Assembly (NCBI RefSeq): GCF_003945765.1
Contig: NZ_CP027712.1
Coordinates: 3,968,001 to 4,032,000, forward strand
Direction: 5' to 3'
DNA from: Pseudomonas chlororaphis subsp. chlororaphis
GTDB lineage: Bacteria; Pseudomonadota; Gammaproteobacteria; Pseudomonadales; Pseudomonadaceae
Length of the DNA: 64,000 bases
Position numbers and translations under genes: made by a program. Below, piece by piece: positions 14,115 through 33,794 of the stretch. Each line of letters opens with the position of its first letter. Position 1 is the first letter of the stretch. The notes under the pieces are model-generated. The model did not search any database, was not told the origin of the DNA, and worked only from the letters and a program-made list of their open reading frames with translations.

Positions 14115-14792
14115 ATGCTGACCCACCCTTCCATCGTGCTGTTGTTGCGTCGCCATCATCTGTTCAGCCAGTTGCCGGACAAGGTCTTCGAGGAGGTCTG
14201 TGCCCAGGCCATGCTCAGGCGCCTGCCCAGCCACAACACCCTGATGCACCAGGGCGACCCGGCCAAGCGCTTTTTCCTGCTGGTCAGCGGCCAGGTCAAG
14301 CTGTACCGCATCACCGGCGAAGGCCAGGAGAACCTGGTGGAAATCATCCAGCCCGGGCAGACCTTCGCCGAGGCCCTGCTGTTCAGCCAGGCGCGCTTCT
14401 ACCCGGTGAATGCCACTGCGCTGAAAGACAGCGTGCTGGTCAGCATCGACGGCAACCATTACCGCCACGCCCTGGAGGACCAGCCGCAGGTGTGCCTGGC
14501 GATCCTGGCGAGCATGAGCGTGCACCTGCACCAGCGCCTCAAGGACATCGACACCCTGACCCTGGGCAGCGCCAGCCGGCGGGTGGTGAGTTTCCTGTTG
14601 CAGGAGCGCGACCCGCACAGCGGCGAGGTGGTGCTGCAAGTGTCCAAGCGCCTGGTGGCCTCCAAGCTGGGGATCCAGCCGGAGACCTTCTCGCGCATCC
14701 TCCATCGGTTGGTCGAAAGCGGCCTGATCGCCATGGAGCGGCGCACTATCCAGATCCCCGGCGCCGAGGAGCTGGCGGCGTACGACGCGTAA
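14115..14792 (+). CDS. Crp/Fnr-family regulator, Dnr-type, next to narXL
   Basis: 225-residue Crp/Fnr regulator with an N-terminal cyclic-nucleotide-binding-like beta roll, a dimerisation helix (~130-150) and a C-terminal winged helix whose recognition helix IQPETFSRILHRL has the E..SR contacts typical of TTGAT-binding FNR proteins. There is no N-terminal cysteine cluster, so it is not an oxygen-sensing Anr. It keeps the HHLF motif near residue 14 like Dnr, but the position equivalent to Dnr His187 is lysine (K184). P. stutzeri has a comparable Dnr-type gene (DnrE) beside narXL. Start ATG 14115 has GGAGGTACCC ahead; an upstream in-frame extension is rejected. Confidence 0.9.
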   Translation: MLTHPSIVLLLRRHHLFSQLPDKVFEEVCAQAMLRRLPSHNTLMHQGDPAKRFFLLVSGQVKLYRITGEGQENLVEIIQPGQTFAEALLFSQARFYPVNATALKDSVLVSIDGNHYRHALEDQPQVCLAILASMSVHLHQRLKDIDTLTLGSASRRVVSFLLQERDPHSGEVVLQVSKRLVASKLGIQPETFSRILHRLVESGLIAMERRTIQIPGAEELAAYDA

Positions 14793-20212: not shown

Positions 20213-21748
20213 CTATTTGAGCCGCAGGCGCCGGGCCAGTTTGTGCAGGTTGCTCGGGTCGACCTCCAGCAGCCGGGCGGCGCGGGCCCAGTTGTTGCGG
20301 CAGCGGCTCAGGGCCTGGTGAATCTTCTGCCGCTGGTACTCGTCGACGGCTTCGCTCAGGGGCTGGAAGGGCCCGTCGTCGGCCGCCGGCGGCGACTGTT
20401 CGAGCGGCTCCGCGCCCTTCAGCGTGCTGTCGAGATCGAGGACTTCCGGCTCCAAGGTCAAAATCAGGTTGCGACTGCCGCCACGGCTGAGCTGTTTGAG
20501 CGCGGCGCGGCTGATCACGTGTTCCAGCTCGCGCACATTGCCCGGCCAGGGGTACGCCAGCAGCGCCCGTTCGGCCGCCGGCGACAGGCGCAGGCCACGC
20601 AGGCCAAGACGGCTGCGGTTGAGTTCGAGGAAATGCCCGGCCAGCAGCAACACGTCGGAACCGCGTTCGCGCAGCGGTGGGATCGGCACCGGGTACACCG
20701 AAAGCCGGTGGTACAGGTCGGCGCGAAACAGCCCGTCGCGAATGCTGTCCGGCAGGTGGCGGTTGGTCGCGGCGATGATGCGCACATCCACATGCAGCGG
20801 CTTGTCCGCCCCCAGGCGCTGGATCTCGCCATTCTGCAGGGTGCGCAGCAACTTGGCCTGCACGCTCAACGGCAGCTCGCCGACCTCGTCGAGAAACAGC
20901 GTGCCGCCGTTGGCCGCGTCGAAGCGCCCGGCGCGGTCGCTGGTGGCGCCGGAGAAGGCGCCCTTGACGTGACCGAACAACTCGCTCTCGGCCAGGGATT
21001 CCGGCAGCGCCGCGCAGTTGACCTGCACCAGCGGCTTGTGGGCGCGCCGCGACAAGCGATGCAGGCGCCGGGCGAACAGCTCCTTGCCAACCCCGGTCTC
21101 GCCCAGCAGCAACACCGGCAGCTCGGAATCGGCGAGCACGTCCAGCTCGTTGAGCAACTGATGCAGGACTTCGCTCTGGCCGAGGATCTCGCCCTCCTCC
21201 ACCGGCCCGCGCGCATCCTGCGGCTCGCTGCGCGACAGGCGCAGGCTACGGTTTTCCTGTTCCAGGCGGGTGACCCGCAGCGCCGCCTCGATCTGCAGGC
21301 TGCAGCGCTTGAGCTCATCCCGCGCCCGGCGGTCGAAGGTCCCGGGCCGCAGCGCGTCGAGGGTGATGGCGCCCCAGACCCGCCCTTCCACATACAGGCT
21401 CACGCCCATGCAGTCGTGCACCGCCAGCGGCCCGCTGTCCGGGTGGTCGAGCAGCCCGTCATAAGGGTCCGGCAGGCGGCTGTCGGGCTCGAACCAGGTG
21501 GGCTCGCGGGACGCCATGATCGCCGCCAGGCGCGGGTGCTGGGCGATCACGAAGCGCCGCCCGAGGGCTTCATGCACCAGGCCGACGGTGGCCAGCGGCC
21601 GCAGGCTGTCGTCGTCCAGGCGCAGCAGGCCCACGGCCCCGGCCTTGAAGTACTCACGCAGGGTCTGCACCAGACGCTGCAACCGCACGGCATTGGGCAA
21701 CTCGACAATCAGGTCGGCCGCCAGACTTTCACGCAACATGGTAGTCAT
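20213..21748 (-). CDS. norR: Nitric oxide-responsive sigma-54 activator NorR
   Basis: 511-residue enhancer-binding protein. A GAF domain (~20-160) holds acidic residues D94/D97 and D131 and R81, placed like the residues around the NO-sensing iron of E. coli NorR. The AAA+ domain has Walker A GETGVGKE (216-223), Walker B LFLDE (284-288) and the sigma-54 loop written GAFSGA (263-268) instead of GAFTGA. A Fis-type helix-turn-helix ends the protein. ATG 21748 follows AAAGGGTG; a GTG one codon earlier is possible. It is divergent from dnrN, whose upstream region carries three GT-N7-AC sites plus a sigma-54 promoter; the first site overlaps the norR start, allowing autoregulation. Confidence 0.95.
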   Translation of the reverse strand: MTTMLRESLAADLIVELPNAVRLQRLVQTLREYFKAGAVGLLRLDDDSLRPLATVGLVHEALGRRFVIAQHPRLAAIMASREPTWFEPDSRLPDPYDGLLDHPDSGPLAVHDCMGVSLYVEGRVWGAITLDALRPGTFDRRARDELKRCSLQIEAALRVTRLEQENRSLRLSRSEPQDARGPVEEGEILGQSEVLHQLLNELDVLADSELPVLLLGETGVGKELFARRLHRLSRRAHKPLVQVNCAALPESLAESELFGHVKGAFSGATSDRAGRFDAANGGTLFLDEVGELPLSVQAKLLRTLQNGEIQRLGADKPLHVDVRIIAATNRHLPDSIRDGLFRADLYHRLSVYPVPIPPLRERGSDVLLLAGHFLELNRSRLGLRGLRLSPAAERALLAYPWPGNVRELEHVISRAALKQLSRGGSRNLILTLEPEVLDLDSTLKGAEPLEQSPPAADDGPFQPLSEAVDEYQRQKIHQALSRCRNNWARAARLLEVDPSNLHKLARRLRLK

Positions 21749-21795
21749 CACCCTTTCTGGTGGTTCCGACCCCGAGATTTCAGGGTCATCCGCAC
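21741..21795. promoter_or_regulatory. Three NorR-type binding sites upstream of dnrN
   Basis: GT-N7-AC elements occur at 21741-21751, 21760-21770 (GTGGTTCCGAC) and 21785-21795 (GTCATCCGCAC). Their centres lie about 91, 72 and 47 bases before the first base of the sigma-54 promoter. Three NorR enhancers at similar spacing are known before E. coli norVW. The first is a weak match and overlaps the norR start codon. Confidence 0.7.
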
Positions 21796-21836
21796 CACGA
21801 CAAAAAATCAGTCCATTACTTTCAATAAGTTACAGC

Positions 21837-21852
21837 TGGCATGGCGGATGCA
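21837..21852 (+). promoter_or_regulatory. Sigma-54 promoter of dnrN
   Basis: TGGCATGGCGGATGCA has the invariant GG and GC at the correct spacing and 14 of 16 bases compatible with TGGCACG-N4-TTGCW. It ends 39 bases before the chosen dnrN ATG, which excludes the in-frame start at 21841 because that would lie inside the promoter. Confidence 0.78.
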
Positions 21853-21891
21853 ACGGCCCAGGGGAACCGTTGCCACAACAAGGAAAACCTG

Positions 21892-22608
21892 ATGAACCCG
21901 ACACTGCTGGAACGACCCGGTCTTGCCCGACAAGACGCTTCGCAGCCCAACCTCCTGGAACAAAGCCTCGGCCAACTGGCCTGCGACATCCCCGGCGCCA
22001 GCCGGGTGTTTCATGAGTTCAACCTGGACTTCTGCTGCGGCGGGCAGAAAACCCTGCGCGACGCCGCCCTCGGCAAAGGCCTCGACCCCGTGCAGATCGC
22101 CGAGGCCCTGCACCTGTTGCAAGACAGCGACGCCCGGCGGCACGACTGGCGCGATGAACCGGGCGAGGCGCTGATCGCCCATATCCTCACCCGCTACCAC
22201 GCCCGCCACCGCGAACAGCTGCCGGAACTGATCCGCCTGGCCTGCCGCGTGGAGCAAGTGCATGGCGCCCGCGACACCTGCCCCAACGGCCTGGCCGATC
22301 ACCTGCGGGACATGCTGCAGGAACTCGAAGGCCACATGCTCAAGGAAGAACAGGTGCTGTTCCCGATGCTGCAACAGGGCCTGGGCCGCCGGGCGGCGCC
22401 GCCGATCCATGTGCTGCGCCTGGAGCACGAGCAACATGGCGAGGCCCTGGAAAAACTGCTGGTGCTGACCGACCACATCACCCCGCCCGCCGACGCCTGC
22501 AACACCTGGCGCGCGCTGTACCGCGGGTTGAGCGAATTTCGCGACGACCTGATGCAGCACATCCATCTGGAAAACAACGTGCTGTTCGCCAACGCCCTGA
22601 ACGCTTGA
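21892..22608 (+). CDS. dnrN: Iron-sulfur cluster repair di-iron protein (RIC/YtfE/DnrN)
   Basis: 238-residue cytoplasmic protein that repairs iron centres damaged by NO or oxidants. The ScdA-type N-terminal domain has FNLDFCCGGQKTL with its cysteine pair; the hemerythrin-like domain supplies His/Glu ligands in HILTRYHARHREQ, ELEGHMLKEEQVLFP, LRLEHEQHGE and QHIHLENNVLF. ATG 21892 has AAGGAAAACC ahead. It is transcribed away from norR behind a sigma-54 promoter with NorR-type sites. A strong hairpin follows the stop. Confidence 0.94.
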   Translation: MNPTLLERPGLARQDASQPNLLEQSLGQLACDIPGASRVFHEFNLDFCCGGQKTLRDAALGKGLDPVQIAEALHLLQDSDARRHDWRDEPGEALIAHILTRYHARHREQLPELIRLACRVEQVHGARDTCPNGLADHLRDMLQELEGHMLKEEQVLFPMLQQGLGRRAAPPIHVLRLEHEQHGEALEKLLVLTDHITPPADACNTWRALYRGLSEFRDDLMQHIHLENNVLFANALNA

Positions 22609-22620
22609 CCCCCGCCCCTG

Positions 22621-22644
22621 CGTGCCAGCCCGGTGGCTGGCACG
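22621..22644. terminator. Hairpin after dnrN
   Basis: CGTGCCAGCC and GGCTGGCACG form a perfect 10-bp stem with a 4-base loop, 12 bases after the dnrN stop and before the convergent membrane-protein gene. A T tract is short (GTTCATT), so it may stop transcription from both sides only partly. Confidence 0.75.
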
Positions 22645-22649
22645 TTCAT

Positions 22650-23090
22650 TCAGCCATGCCAATAGAACATCGCCTTGGCCAGGACCACGATCAGCAGCAT
22701 GTGCCCCAGCACGCTGCGGCGGATCCAGCAGGCGCGGCCGGCGCTCAGCCGTGACGTTTTCAACCAGTACGCCAGCAGCAGGTAATGGCCGATGATGCTC
22801 AGGGCCAGGACGATCTTCAGGCTCAACAGGCTGGCGAAACTGCTGCTCAAGGGCTGGCTCAAGGCCCCGCGATGCTGCCAGGCCAGGCCGATACCGGCGC
22901 CGTACAACAGCAGCACCACGCCATGCAGGACCTTGCGCGAACGCACCGCGATGGCCTGGTCCGCCGCCACCTGGGCGTCCGTCGCCAGTTGCCGGCGCGC
23001 CGTGTGCCAGATGCACACCTCGAAGAACAGCGTGCCGATAAAACCGATGGCCGCCAGCAGGTGGATAACCACTAACCAGGGATAAATCAT
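22650..23090 (-). CDS. Small CopD-like four-helix membrane protein, linked to nnrS
   Basis: 146-residue integral membrane protein with four hydrophobic segments and histidines near or in each (IHLLAAIGFIG, KVLHGVVLLLYG, SIIGHYLLLAYW, GHMLLIVVLAKAMFYW), suggesting haem or copper binding; the exact family was not recognised beyond CopD likeness. A close paralogue occurs at 33351-33794 beside moaD. It lies 29 bases after the nnrS stop on the same strand, so the two are probably one operon. Function unknown; an NO-stress or haem/copper-handling role is inferred from the neighbours. Confidence 0.8.
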   Translation of the reverse strand: MIYPWLVVIHLLAAIGFIGTLFFEVCIWHTARRQLATDAQVAADQAIAVRSRKVLHGVVLLLYGAGIGLAWQHRGALSQPLSSSFASLLSLKIVLALSIIGHYLLLAYWLKTSRLSAGRACWIRRSVLGHMLLIVVLAKAMFYWHG

Positions 23091-23119
23091 TGCCCTTCTC
23101 CTTGCTCCGCATTCAGGGC

Positions 23120-24310
23120 TCAGCCCGGGTGCCCGTCGACCCGCGCCCGCAGCAGCATCGGCCCGTAGCGCCAGACGTACAGGGCAAAGGCCAGGGCCCA
23201 GCACAGGCCCGCCAGCCACAACGCCGCCACCGGCAGCCAGAGCACCAGCAGCACCCGGCTGAGGCAGGCCAGATTGAGCAGGATGAACGCCAGGGTCATG
23301 CCCGCCGGCGGCTCCAGCGGCCGCCCGGTATGGCCCAGGCTGACCCGGGCGATCATCGCCAGGATCAGCCCGGCCATGGCGCCGATGGTCAGGCCGTGCA
23401 CGGCCAGGCTGGGGTTCAGCGGCGCGCCGAAATGCCACAGCGCCATGCCCAGGCACGCCAGCGCCAGCCAGCCGTAGGCCAGGTGCAGCGACCACAGCAG
23501 CGGCACGCGCCACAGCCCGCGGTCCTGCCAGCGCCACAACCGCAGCAGATGCGCGGCCGCCAGCAGCAGGAACAGCGCGCCAACCCAGGTATTGGCGATG
23601 AGCGCCGGCCCGGCGGCATACAGCAGCGCCACCAGGGCCGAACCCGCCAGCAGCAGATAATCGAGCCATGGCCAGGGCGTCACGGCCGCGACCCGACCCA
23701 GGCCGCGCTGGGTGAAAAACGGAATCACCCGCCCGCCGATCAGGCTCATCATCGCCGCCACCAGCCACAGGCCGCTCAGCACGCCCTGGCGCTGCCAGCC
23801 TTCGTGGCCTTGCAGCAGGCCGGCCACCGACAGGCCGTCCGCCGCGGCGAGCAACAGCAGCACCAGGACAATCGGGTAGTTGCGCTGCTGGCGCACCTTC
23901 CACAGCATGCGGCCCATCAACCCGGCCAGCGCCAGGGGAAACCCCAGCTCCAGCACCGCCAGCAGCGGCCAGGGCGCGCTGCCCAGCCAGGCCAGGCGCG
24001 CGGCCAGCCAGAGCAAGGCCAGGGCCGCCAGCGGCTTGCCGCAGAGGCCCGGCTGGCCGGTCCAGGTCTGCGCCGCGGTCAGCAGGAAGCCGGCGATGAT
24101 CGCCAGGCCGAAACCGAACAGCAGTTCGTGGCGGTGCCAGCCCAGCCAGCCTCCCGCCGGTTGCCAGTCGCCCAGGGCGCCCTGCAGCGCCGCCAGCCAC
24201 AGCGGCACCACCAGCAGCGCCAGGACACAACCGGCGAGGAAAAACGGCCGGAAGGCCAGGCGTAACAGCGGCACGATTGCCATTGCCGCACGACGCTCAA
24301 GTACTTGCAT
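23120..24310 (-). CDS. nnrS: NnrS family membrane protein
   Basis: 396-residue haem-copper membrane protein of the NnrS family, about 12 hydrophobic segments. Family blocks include AFRPFFLAG near the N-terminus, WHRHELLFGFG, GGRVIPFFTQRGL, and HGLTIGAMAGLILAMIARVSLGHTGR. NnrS relieves NO stress in proteobacteria, although the chemistry is unsettled. ATG 24310 is preceded by GGAG at good spacing; a GTG three codons earlier is less likely. A near-consensus Dnr box lies 97 bases upstream. Confidence 0.93.
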   Translation of the reverse strand: MQVLERRAAMAIVPLLRLAFRPFFLAGCVLALLVVPLWLAALQGALGDWQPAGGWLGWHRHELLFGFGLAIIAGFLLTAAQTWTGQPGLCGKPLAALALLWLAARLAWLGSAPWPLLAVLELGFPLALAGLMGRMLWKVRQQRNYPIVLVLLLLAAADGLSVAGLLQGHEGWQRQGVLSGLWLVAAMMSLIGGRVIPFFTQRGLGRVAAVTPWPWLDYLLLAGSALVALLYAAGPALIANTWVGALFLLLAAAHLLRLWRWQDRGLWRVPLLWSLHLAYGWLALACLGMALWHFGAPLNPSLAVHGLTIGAMAGLILAMIARVSLGHTGRPLEPPAGMTLAFILLNLACLSRVLLVLWLPVAALWLAGLCWALAFALYVWRYGPMLLRARVDGHPG

Positions 24311-24406
24311 CAAGCCCACTCCTTTACCCAGCGTGCGACCCGGCGACGGTCGACACGCGGCGAATGAAATCCCCGGCCATCATCGGCCATTGGCGCGCCC
24401 TTGCCG

Positions 24407-24420
24407 TTGTCGCAAATCAA
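24407..24420. promoter_or_regulatory. Probable Dnr box upstream of nnrS (one mismatch)
   Basis: TTGTCGCAAATCAA has nine of ten conserved bases of TTGAY-N4-RTCAA and lies 97 bases before the nnrS start. Call is moderate because of the mismatch in the left half. Confidence 0.5.
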
Positions 24421-24573
24421 GCTTGCCCGGGATGCGGCGGGCTGTTGTGCCCACCGTCCTGTCTGGCAGTGCAAGGGCCGTGCCCCGGGGCCCGATCACC
24501 ACCAGGAACGGCCATAAGCCGGCGGGCCGGGGTTGCGGCCGGCGCGGTGCCGGGGCTCGCCTTACAGCGCGAG

Positions 24574-24630
24574 GGTCAAAATGACCATTCGCTAGTCATT
24601 TACACCCGAAATCGCCAGGTCTTTTTGACC
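24574..24630. promoter_or_regulatory. Three NorR-type binding sites upstream of the small peptide gene and dnr
   Basis: GGTCAAAATGACC (24574-24586) is a perfect GTCA-N3-TGAC NorR site; GTCATTTACAC (24595-24605) and GGTCTTTTTGACC (24618-24630) also fit GT-N7-AC. Centres lie about 91, 71 and 47 bases before the sigma-54 promoter, matching the dnrN array within a base. Binding is inferred from consensus and this shared geometry. Confidence 0.82.
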
Positions 24631-24670
24631 ACGTAGCCACAGATCCCCCGCCTACAGGGACCCTGGCGCC

Positions 24671-24686
24671 TGGCCCGGCTCTTGCT
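24671..24686 (+). promoter_or_regulatory. Sigma-54 promoter of the small peptide-dnr transcript
   Basis: TGGCCCGGCTCTTGCT matches TGGCACG-N4-TTGCW at all but one specified position, with invariant GG and GC correctly spaced. It lies 42 bases before the 36-codon gene and about 200 before dnr, and downstream of three NorR-type sites. Confidence 0.85.
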
Positions 24687-24728: not shown

Positions 24729-24839
24729 ATGAATACCGCCGCAGCCACCCTGAAAAAGACCCTCCAGCCACTGACGTGGTTTTTCGTCCTGGGCGCGATC
24801 CTGGCCCTCGCCAGCCGCGTCGCCCTGGGCCTCGTCTGA
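24729..24839 (+). CDS. 36-residue single-span membrane peptide upstream of dnr
   Basis: Short gene, ATG to TGA, with CCGGAGCCACC as ribosome site. The peptide has a short cationic start (around LKKTLQP) followed by one hydrophobic helix (WFFVLGAILALASRVALGLV) running to the C-terminus, so it should insert in the inner membrane. Third positions are mostly G/C, as in true local genes. It sits 42 bases after a sigma-54 promoter and 43 bases before dnr, so it is first in the transcript. I do not recognise a family; roles such as a small subunit of a respiratory complex or an NO-response microprotein are speculative. Confidence 0.68.
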   Translation: MNTAAATLKKTLQPLTWFFVLGAILALASRVALGLV

Positions 24840-24882
24840 ACCACGGCAGCACCTTTCCCCCCAGCCATAAGGATGAATATTC

Positions 24883-25566
24883 ATGGTGCTTCATCGCGTG
24901 CATCACCAGATCCTGCGCAGCCATCACCTGTTCGAGCCCTTGAACGAGGAACAGCTGGACGAGCTGATGGCGGCCAGCCAGTTGCTCAGCCTCGACAAGG
25001 GCGACCCGCTGTTCCGCCAGGGGGAGCCGGCCGAGGCTTTCTATTTCGTGATCGCCGGCGCGGTGAAGGTCTACCGCCTGACGCCGGATGGGCAGGAAAA
25101 AGTGCTCGAGGTCATCGGCCCGCGCCAGACCTTCGCCGAGGCGATGATGCTGATGGATACGCCAGACTATGTGGCTTGCGCCGAAGCCATCGGCCCGACC
25201 CAGCTCTATCGCCTGTCCAACGACACCTACCTGCGCCTGCTGCAAAGCAACAGCCGCCTGACCTTCGCCCTGCTGGGCAAGCTCTGCGTGCGCCTGCACC
25301 AGCGGGTCAACGAGATCGAAACCCTGTCGCTGAAGAACGCCACCCACAGGGTGGTGCGTTATCTGCTGACGCAACTGATGCAGCTGCAACCGGTGGAGCG
25401 CCGGTTCGAGCTGCCGATGGCCAAGCAGTTGATCGCCGGCCACCTGGCGATCCAGCCGGAGACGTTCTCGCGGATCATCCGGCGCCTGATCGATGAAAAG
25501 ATCATCAGCCAGGACGGCCGCCAGATCGTCATTCTCGACCGTCCGCGGCTGGAGCAATTCGAATGA
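24883..25566 (+). CDS. dnr: Denitrification regulator Dnr (Crp/Fnr family, NO-responsive)
   Basis: 227-residue Crp/Fnr regulator closely resembling P. aeruginosa Dnr in every block readable here (SHHLFEPL, RLTPDGQEKVLEV, TFAEAMM, DEI/NEIETLSLKNATHRVVRYLLT, AKQLIAGHLAIQPETFSRI). No Fe-S cysteines. H14/H15 and H187 are present; His187 has been implicated in haem binding in Dnr. It activates nor, nir and nos promoters through TTGAT-N4-ATCAA boxes, of which several exist in this window. ATG 24883 follows AAGGATG. Transcription appears to come from a NorR/sigma-54 promoter; no FNR box was found upstream. dnrP overlaps its stop. Confidence 0.97.
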   Translation: MVLHRVHHQILRSHHLFEPLNEEQLDELMAASQLLSLDKGDPLFRQGEPAEAFYFVIAGAVKVYRLTPDGQEKVLEVIGPRQTFAEAMMLMDTPDYVACAEAIGPTQLYRLSNDTYLRLLQSNSRLTFALLGKLCVRLHQRVNEIETLSLKNATHRVVRYLLTQLMQLQPVERRFELPMAKQLIAGHLAIQPETFSRIIRRLIDEKIISQDGRQIVILDRPRLEQFE

Positions 25567-25757
25567 GCGCCGGGTCGGTCTGCCTGTACTGCCAAGGCCT
25601 CAACCCGCCTCGGCAAGCCTCCTGCCGCCATTGCGGCATGCCCCTTCCCGCTACTGCGGCGCACGCCGAACAACGGCGGTTGCGGCGCTTCAGCGGGTTC
25701 TGCATCGGCCTGACGCTGTTCTGCGTGGCGATGTTCTTCTGGCTGCCGCGCTCCTAG
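25563..25757 (+). CDS. dnrP: DnrP-like zinc-ribbon membrane protein
   Basis: 64-residue protein with a zinc ribbon (CLYC and CRHC, cysteines ~7-24) and one C-terminal hydrophobic helix (FSGFCIGLTLFCVAMFFWL). The ATGA overlap with dnr shows co-translation. It fits what pseudomonad annotation calls DnrP; the function of that protein is not known to me. The cytosolic ribbon tethered to the membrane could be a redox or metal sensor, by inference only. Confidence 0.75.
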   Translation: MSAGSVCLYCQGLNPPRQASCRHCGMPLPATAAHAEQRRLRRFSGFCIGLTLFCVAMFFWLPRS

Positions 25758-30065: not shown

Positions 30066-30079
30066 TTGATGGCAATCAA
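30066..30079. promoter_or_regulatory. Dnr box upstream of norC
   Basis: TTGATGGCAATCAA has all ten conserved bases. It is centred about 64 bases before the norC ATG, in the gap to the norF stop, and explains NO-dependent expression of norCB through Dnr. Confidence 0.9.
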
Positions 30080-33350: not shown

Positions 33351-33794
33351 CTACCAGTTCAGGTAGAACATGCCCTTGGCCAGCAGCACGATCAGCAGCA
33401 TATGGCCGAACAGGCTGTGATGGATGAAGCGCGAATAGCGGGCATTCATGCGCCCGCTCCGGAACAGCAGCATGGCCACCAGGAAATGCCCGAGCACGCT
33501 GGCGGCCAGCAGGATCTTCAGCAGCAGCAAGGTGCCGAACGACGACGCCAGCGGCGCTGCCAGCACCGGCAGGTAACGCACCCAGACCATGCCCAGCCCG
33601 GCACCGAACAGCACCAGCAGCACCCAGGGCATCAGTTGGCGGGCACGGCCGGCGATACCCTGTTCGAGCAGCACCATAAGCTTGGCCGGCAGTTGCTGGC
33701 GGATGTGTTCCAGGAACAGCACCTCGAAGAACACCGTGCCGATGAAGACCAGCGCGGCGAACAGGTGCAAGGTGAGCAGCAGCGGATAGATCAT
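33351..33794 (-). CDS. Small CopD-like four-helix membrane protein, second copy
   Basis: 147-residue paralogue of the protein at 22650-23090: both begin MIYP, share LHL(F/L)AA-FIGT-FFEV, a GH motif in the third helix and GHMLLIV-LAK-MFY near the end. Four hydrophobic segments; histidines placed for haem or copper binding. It starts 4 bases after the moaD stop, so it is the third gene of moaC-moaD. Function unknown; retention beside both nnrS and moaCD suggests a shared role in anaerobic haem or metal traffic (inference). Confidence 0.8.
   Translation of the reverse strand: MIYPLLLTLHLFAALVFIGTVFFEVLFLEHIRQQLPAKLMVLLEQGIAGRARQLMPWVLLVLFGAGLGMVWVRYLPVLAAPLASSFGTLLLLKILLAASVLGHFLVAMLLFRSGRMNARYSRFIHHSLFGHMLLIVLLAKGMFYLNW

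What the first reader, a model, noticed from the sequence alone, without database searches (positions are those of the whole stretch)
21741..24686. Two sigma-54 promoters with superimposable triple NorR sites: dnrN and the peptide-dnr transcript
Upstream of dnrN and of the small peptide-dnr unit I find three GT-N7-AC sites plus a sigma-54 promoter. Site centres lie at about 91, 72 and 47 bases before the promoter at dnrN, and 91, 71 and 47 at dnr. Independent chance of the same spacing is small. It would place NorR above Dnr, so NO would induce its own second sensor. In P. aeruginosa NorR is mainly tied to the flavohaemoglobin gene, so control of dnr would be a different wiring.
Basis: partly seen in the sequence, partly recalled or inferred. 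Interest (0 to 1): 0.78.

Follow-up and report, generated by a model that had tools for sequence, protein, structure and literature searches.

The report
NorR switch upstream of dnr regulator
In this Pseudomonas and many of its relatives, the gene for one nitric-oxide sensor (Dnr) carries the promoter signature of another nitric-oxide sensor (NorR), so nitric oxide probably makes the cell build the second sensor as well as activate it.

Summary
Two GT-N7-AC triplets lie 91/72/47 (dnrN) and 91/71/47 (peptide-dnr) bases before a sigma-54 box. They are the only such triplets in 64 kb; shuffles give 0.013 per strand, and none of 300 had one with the box.

Of 80 named dnr loci, 67 carry the triplet upstream of dnr. 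Of 68 dnr genomes in a draw of 298 of the genus, 56 have full-length window-type NorR: 52 with an intact dnr triplet, 2 with one decayed site, 2 with dnr in line behind dnrN. None of the other 12 has one. On a tree this is only 2-3 independent events, and two named loci keep the triplet without NorR.

The paralogue FhpR sits beside sites of a different motif. In the window's own lineage the dnr triplet fits both motifs equally, so FhpR input is open.

Best reading: NO -> NorR/sigma-54 -> peptide-dnr-dnrP, a feed-forward loop unlike ANR/NarL control in P. aeruginosa. Known machinery, new target as far as I could search. Nothing was tested at the bench.

The parts
20213..21748 (-). norR, NO-responsive sigma-54 activator (GAF, AAA+, Fis-type HTH), 511 aa
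   Evidence: NCBIfam NorR equivalog 693 bits, cut-off 476; Pfam domains; NO-centre residues aligned with E. coli NorR
21740..21752 (+). NorR site 1 of dnrN promoter, GGTAGTCATCACC; overlaps the norR start codon at 21748
   Evidence: conserved in relatives
21759..21771 (+). NorR site 2 of dnrN promoter, GGTGGTTCCGACC
21784..21796 (+). NorR site 3 of dnrN promoter, GGTCATCCGCACC
21837..21851 (+). sigma-54 box of dnrN, TGGCATGGCGGATGC
   Evidence: 47-48 bases from site 3 in relatives
21892..22608 (+). dnrN (ytfE/ric), di-iron Fe-S repair protein, 238 aa
   Evidence: NCBIfam YtfE 328 bits, cut-off 254
23120..24319 (-). nnrS, divergent from peptide-dnr
   Evidence: Pfam NnrS 364 bits
24407..24420 (.). 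FNR/DNR-like box TTGTCGCAAATCAA, most likely for nnrS
   Evidence: 2 mismatches to TTGAT-N4-ATCAA; a match to a loosened pattern within 170 bases of the nnrS start in 71 of 72 loci, median 80 (no chance control was run)
24574..24586 (+). NorR site 1 of peptide-dnr promoter, GGTCAAAATGACC
   Evidence: conserved
24594..24606 (+). NorR site 2 of peptide-dnr promoter, AGTCATTTACACC
   Evidence: conserved
24618..24630 (+). NorR site 3 of peptide-dnr promoter, GGTCTTTTTGACC
   Evidence: conserved
24671..24685 (+). sigma-54 box of peptide-dnr, TGGCCCGGCTCTTGC
   Evidence: conserved
24729..24839 (+). 36-aa peptide gene, probably one membrane helix (by eye), no family match
   Evidence: 29-aa orthologues in 66 of 80 loci, median dN/dS 0.27 over 289 pairs; no NCBIfam or Pfam hit
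24883..25566 (+). dnr, Crp/Fnr-family regulator, 227 aa
   Evidence: Pfam cNMP_binding and HTH_Crp_2; no NCBIfam model above its cut-off; the gene beside nnrS and norD is called dnr in P. donghuensis (PMC10256816)
25563..25757 (+). dnrP, 64 aa, CxxC...CxxC; overlaps the dnr stop codon, so probably the same transcript
   Evidence: homologues named protein DnrP

Best explanation
NorR, encoded at 20213-21748, controls two sigma-54 promoters: that of its divergent neighbour dnrN, and that of the transcript peptide-dnr-dnrP starting just after 24671-24685. NO binds the iron centre in the NorR GAF domain and releases the AAA+ domain; NorR, held on three sites, then opens the sigma-54 RNA polymerase 47 bases from the third site. 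The product Dnr is itself an NO sensor and acts at FNR/DNR boxes, for example the one at 30066 upstream of the likely norCB genes. NO therefore both makes and activates Dnr, a coherent feed-forward loop that does not need the oxygen sensor ANR to start. Shown here: sites, spacing, box, conservation, correlation with norR, motif difference from FhpR-linked sites. Inferred: NorR binding, sigma-54 use, NO induction of dnr through NorR, and the downstream action of Dnr.
For: Two triplets only in 64 kb, far above shuffles. In 80 named loci (5-13 kb each, both strands) 122 triplet+box units were found; the next of seven searched genes on that strand is dnr for 64 and dnrN for 58, and none lies on the other strand. 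Three further loci (L022, L024, L030) keep triplet and box with an insertion between. At 37 dnr promoters of equal spacing the outer G and C, not demanded by my search, are 86-100% constant, against a mean of 60% for flanks and spacers. Of 68 dnr genomes: full-length NorR 56, of which 52 have an intact triplet before dnr (50 with a box in range, 2 with it displaced); FhpR-type only or GAF-less NorR 9, of which 0 do. The 4 misses: two have one decayed site, two have dnr directly behind dnrN. Of the 13 named loci without a dnr triplet, 0 lie in a genome with full-length NorR. Outer G..C: dnrN sites 174 of 174, dnr sites 176 of 192, FhpR-linked sites 0 of 54; inner C..G: 3, 18 and 54. In P. donghuensis P482 on tomato exudates, RNA-seq shows ytfE/dnrN +6.36, hmp +6.13, nnrS +4.99, norC +4.44, dnr +3.23 log2, nir genes not induced (PMC10256816, passages); L016, from another strain of that species, has the dnr triplet.
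Against: Only 2-3 independent changes link NorR and the sites on the dnr tree, so the Fisher value of 2.2e-8 overstates the case; it also leaves out 3 genomes with a 67-68% NorR and no dnr triplet. L010 and L012 keep a dnr triplet although their genomes hold only the FhpR-type protein at E <= 1e-100 (L010 also a GAF remnant of norR). The window's own dnr triplet scores -1.0, that is even, between the two motifs, and L009, L010, L012 and L026 score -18 to -34. No binding data and no norR or rpoN mutants are at hand.
Confidence: 0.8

Rival explanations
1. The dnr triplet of the window is read by the paralogue FhpR (with or without NorR), so dnr is co-regulated with flavohaemoglobin; in lineages that lost norR, FhpR has taken over the sites.
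For: A NorR-family paralogue divergent from a flavohaemoglobin gene lies elsewhere in the genome. L010 and L012 lack window-type NorR but keep the triplet, with some outer bases changed and inner C..G present, as in FhpR-linked sites. The window's sites 1 and 3 hold GTC-N5-GAC and its triplet scores even.
Against: Across relatives 60 of 64 dnr triplets score for the dnrN motif. All 7 dnr genomes with only the FhpR type, and 3 with FhpR plus a 67-68% NorR, lack the dnr triplet. The changed sites of L010 and L012 may simply be decaying.
Confidence: 0.14
2. dnr is mainly driven by ANR/NarL as in P. aeruginosa; the NorR sites are a minor input.
For: ANR and NarL activate dnr in P. aeruginosa (PMC3299288, PMC12403760, passages). 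An FNR-like box lies in the nnrS-dnr gap in 71 of 72 loci. In groups g9/g12, 10 of 11 loci have an FNR box before dnrN-dnr.
Against: In triplet-bearing loci that box lies 251-642 bases before dnr but a median of 80 from nnrS over all loci, which fits nnrS better. No FNR box with at most 2 mismatches lies between the triplet and dnr in the window.
Confidence: 0.1
3. The triplet between nnrS and dnr serves nnrS, or is a non-functional relic.
For: NorR control of nnrS is proposed for V. cholerae and P. aeruginosa (PMC1274295, passages).
Against: All 122 triplet+box units point towards dnr or dnrN and none to nnrS. GGT/ACC and the sigma-54 box are held constant while spacers vary.
Confidence: 0.03

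Closest known systems
E. coli norR/norVW and Ralstonia norR/norAB sigma-54 promoters
   Same: Divergent norR; three GT-N7-AC sites upstream of a sigma-54 box; E. coli norV spacing 21/24 in K-12; norA of Ralstonia is a dnrN/ytfE-type gene (recalled)
   Different: Targets there are NO-detoxifying enzymes; here one target is the gene of a second NO sensor. Third site to box is 61 in E. coli, 47 here
P. stutzeri dnrN and hmp NorR sites (Rodionov et al. 2005, PMC1274295)
   Same: Tandem NorR sites plus sigma-54 before dnrN predicted in 2005; hmp sites at -192, -173, -148 show the 19/25 spacing
   Different: dnr is not named as a NorR target in the passages and sections 10 and 12 that I read; among its genomes NorR and DNR without NsrR occurred together only in P. 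aeruginosa, and all three only in Ralstonia
P. aeruginosa FhpR-fhp
   Same: NorR family, sigma-54, NO-responsive (PMC3299288 passage)
   Different: In this genome the paralogue is 53% identical to the window's NorR, sits by another motif (GTC-N5-GAC) and by flavohaemoglobin
P. aeruginosa ANR/NarL -> dnr cascade
   Same: dnr as second-tier denitrification regulator
   Different: First tier is an oxygen sensor plus a nitrate sensor, not an NO sensor

Membership tests
NorR (NO-responsive sigma-54 activator) | GAF, sigma-54 AAA+ and Fis-type HTH domains; NorR family score | tested here: met
   NorR equivalog 693 bits against cut-off 476; GAF and Sigma54_activat in Pfam, HTH_8 just under its cut-off, 21.8 against 22
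NorR (NO-responsive sigma-54 activator) | NO-sensing iron-centre residues (E. coli R75, D99, H111, C113) | tested here: met
   All four identical in the alignment; roles from PMC2941729 passage
NorR-dependent promoter | Three GT-N7-AC sites upstream of a sigma-54 box | tested here: met
   Both promoters; conserved
NorR-dependent promoter | NorR binds the sites; transcription needs rpoN and NO | not testable with these tools
   Needs footprint and mutants
FhpR-type target | GTC-N5-GAC sites without outer G..C, as beside FhpR-type genes | tested here: inconclusive
   Across relatives only 18 of 192 dnr sites have inner C..G, and 176 have outer G..C; the window's own triplet scores even, -1.0
P. 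aeruginosa-type ANR control of dnr | FNR/ANR box close upstream of dnr | tested here: not met
   Only a 2-mismatch box at 24407-24420, over 460 bases before dnr and 88 from the nnrS start (coordinates)

The most novel reading that the evidence does not exclude
In this branch of Pseudomonas the two NO sensors are stacked. NorR/sigma-54, which needs no anoxia, makes Dnr, and Dnr then opens its own regulon. Free NO from a plant or neighbour could thus switch on NO reductase and NnrS under air without ANR and without nitrite reductase. The input of dnr is interchangeable in evolution: NorR, possibly FhpR, or an FNR box, following the fate of norR.
Probability: 0.5. Interest if true: 0.7.

Novelty: new variant of a known kind. 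Interest (0 to 1): 0.6.

Why it matters
The textbook Pseudomonas cascade puts an oxygen sensor (ANR) above Dnr. Here an NO sensor seems to sit there, in 54 of the 68 dnr genomes sampled if single-site decay is allowed, and in 2 more through dnrN. That changes when NO reductase can be made (NO alone, perhaps in air) and offers an explanation of why nor, nnrS and dnr but not nir rose in P. donghuensis on tomato exudates (PMC10256816). It bears on NO and N2O release by rhizosphere pseudomonads, and genomes with and without the sites give ready natural controls.

Tried and rejected
Chance: rejected. Service to nnrS: rejected. Independence of the co-loss: tested and found weak, 3 changes of NorR coinciding with 3 of the sites, 2 on well-supported branches. 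My first sigma-54 scan was mis-specified (0 hits on the plus strand, 1 on the minus) and was replaced. In one search the sigma-54 filter left no FhpR-linked sites, so that motif comes from triplets without a sigma-54 requirement: 18 triplets from 21 regions; L207, L216 and L219 gave none. A flavohaemoglobin match lies in 16 of the 20 regions from other genomes. Searches had sorted 4 dnr promoters with the dnrN set; redid the sorting by gene, and its numbers replace theirs (the window's dnr score moved from +4.1 to -1.0; I lowered the main confidence from 0.82 to 0.80 and raised the FhpR rival from 0.12 to 0.14 for this). I first read the partial norR and dnrN hits of L038, L056 and L057 as deletions of the shared promoter; one search showed the promoter intact and NorR lacking its GAF part. 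Dropped rows: the Fisher test leaves out 3 genomes with 67-68% NorR. One search was given 21 of 80 named loci; for L031, L034, L037 and L064 the NorR state was not determined in the named set. A scan of the whole window genome for further NorR triplets was not done.

Literature: nine searches of the held open-access library listed no paper that I recognised as reporting NorR control of dnr. Apart from listings I saw passages of PMC1274295 (also sections 10 and 12), PMC13086519, PMC10256816, PMC12403760, PMC9414441, PMC3299288 and PMC2941729. RegPrecise itself and subscription papers were not searched, so it may be in print there.
Full report
What is there. norR (20213-21748, minus) is divergent from dnrN (21892-22608, plus); nnrS (23120-24319, minus) is divergent from a 36-aa peptide gene, dnr and dnrP (24729-25757, plus). 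The dnrP start overlaps the dnr stop. In each gap lies a GT-N7-AC triplet followed by a sigma-54 box at 47 bases. The first dnrN site covers the norR start codon, so NorR could also hold down its own gene (inference).

Chance. 128 single sites occur on the window, but only these two triplets. Shuffles give 0.013 triplets per strand and, in 300 shuffles, none with the box. Boxes alone are common: 53 with at most 2 mismatches on both strands.

Conservation. A dnr search of named genomes gave the best 80 of 164 confirmed loci, all labelled Pseudomonas. 65 have a triplet within 500 bases of dnr; 2 more (L082, L087) have it about 610 and 807 bases off with another stretch between: 67 of 80. The 13 without are L033, L038, L056, L057, L070, L073, L074, L076, L077, L080, L081, L085 and L088. 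For each of the 122 triplet+box units the next of my seven query genes on that strand is dnr (64) or dnrN (58). In L022, L024 and L030 a repeat-like stretch of over 100 bases separates triplet and box, yet both persist, as expected of a looping enhancer. Among 37 promoters of equal spacing, GGT/ACC and box columns are about 99% constant, the N7 centres 76%, flanks and spacers 60%; part of this is demanded by the search, but the outer G and C are not, and they are 86-100% constant.

Link to norR. In a draw of 298 genomes of the genus, 68 have dnr and 292 some NorR-family protein at E <= 1e-100. I classed the 68 by the listed best match: full window-type NorR (77% or more) 56, of which G073 and G294 match only in part; 67-68% NorR 3; GAF-less NorR 2 (G122; G025 because its contig is that of L057); FhpR-type only 7. 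Triplets within 1 kb before dnr: 52 of 56, 0 of 3, 0 of 2, 0 of 7. The four misses are G135 (middle site one base off), G226 (first site one base short), and G261 and G279, where dnr lies behind dnrN and the peptide in one line. Fisher on 52/4 against 0/9 gives 2.2e-8, but the tree needs only 3 changes of each trait, which coincide, 2 on well-supported branches. G208 (NorR and sites) and G090 (neither) are sisters. In the named set, 0 of the 13 loci without the triplet lie in a genome with full-length NorR. Against the pattern, L010 and L012 keep a triplet without full NorR.

Which NorR. The second NorR-family gene of this genome is divergent from a flavohaemoglobin gene (565 bits, cut-off 432). 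Regions upstream of such genes in this and 20 other genomes gave 18 triplets, 54 sites: inner C..G (GTC-N5-GAC) 54, outer G..C 0. dnrN sites (174): 3 and 174. dnr sites (192): 18 and 176. A log-odds score of the two motifs, trained on dnrN and FhpR-linked sites, is positive for 60 of 64 dnr triplets and negative for L009, L010, L012 and L026; the window's dnr triplet scores -1.0 and its dnrN triplet +47.0. So across relatives dnr follows the window's NorR, but in the window's own lineage the sites could serve either protein. In L010 and L012, without NorR, they lean to the FhpR motif: hand-over or decay.

NO sensing. The window's NorR keeps R75, D99, H111 and C113 of E. coli NorR, residues tied to the iron centre in PMC2941729. 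E. coli norV gives a triplet of 21/24 spacing (wider limits than elsewhere), with 61 bases to the box.

Origin. In 12 of 13 genomes of group g15 (probably Stutzerimonas; group names are hidden, so this is inference) the order is norR, triplet+box, dnrN, then dnr in the same direction. In the four of these whose dnrN-dnr gap I printed, a gene whose start resembles the window peptide lies between. Two of the 13 have an FNR box 100 bases before dnr, one of them without the triplet. So dnrN-X-dnr may once have been one NorR unit, later split by nnrS and its neighbour, with a NorR promoter on each half; this would account for the two look-alike promoters. Of 11 loci of groups g9 and g12, 10 have an FNR box 870-907 bases before dnr, ahead of dnrN, and none has a triplet within 1.4 kb. 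Two g4 loci and one of two g16 loci have neither.

Expression evidence. In P. donghuensis P482 on tomato exudates dnrN (ytfE), hmp, nnrS, norDBC and dnr rise together while nir genes do not; the authors infer NO donors (PMC10256816 passages). norR is listed at -1.67 there. This fits the loop but shows neither NorR nor sigma-54 dependence.

Other control. The nnrS-dnr gap carries TTGTC-N4-ATCAA or a near variant in 71 of 72 loci, a median of 80 bases from the nnrS start; it probably serves nnrS. In the 10 loci without the triplet that have nnrS it lies 62-406 bases from dnr, against 251-642 in the others, so it may take over there. The genes called norB and norC are named by gene order as in P482; they match COX1 and Cytochrom_C in Pfam and no NCBIfam model above its cut-off.

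Verdict. Observation confirmed, interpretation supported. The machinery is the known NorR/sigma-54 enhancer; the target, dnr, is what is new as far as my searches show.

Noticed in passing
L038 4242-5270, L056, L057 2506-3525 (minus): NorR proteins of about 340 aa without the GAF domain (P. marginalis ICMP 3553_3, P. veronii, P. rhodesiae), next to a DnrN that lacks its N-terminal part; the dnrN triplet is kept, the dnr triplet absent (Pfam on L038 and L057 only). In E. coli NorR the GAF domain represses the AAA+ domain until NO binds (PMC2941729 listing), so these may be always on.
   Followed up: partly
24729-24839; 66 of 80 relatives: A 29-36 aa peptide (near MKKVIQPLAWFVVLTSVLALASGVSLGLV), probably one membrane helix, under purifying selection (dN/dS 0.27); the only named hit of a longer version is 'hypothetical protein'. 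It sits before dnr with or without NorR sites.
   Followed up: partly
22653-23090 and 33351-33794: Two 146-147 aa proteins, 47% identical, both in this cluster and membrane-like by eye; the first has no Pfam or NCBIfam match.
   Followed up: partly
14115-14789: A second Crp/Fnr regulator beside a probable narXL pair, in the position of DnrE in Stutzerimonas (PMC13086519 passage).
   Followed up: no
21740-21752: NorR site 1 of dnrN covers the norR start codon, so NorR may repress itself; norR is listed at -1.67 log2 in P482 (PMC10256816).
   Followed up: no
L010 2920-3783 (minus): P. chlororaphis PCL1601 has no dnrN hit in the fetched locus and only a GAF remnant of norR, but retains the dnr triplet.
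   Followed up: partly
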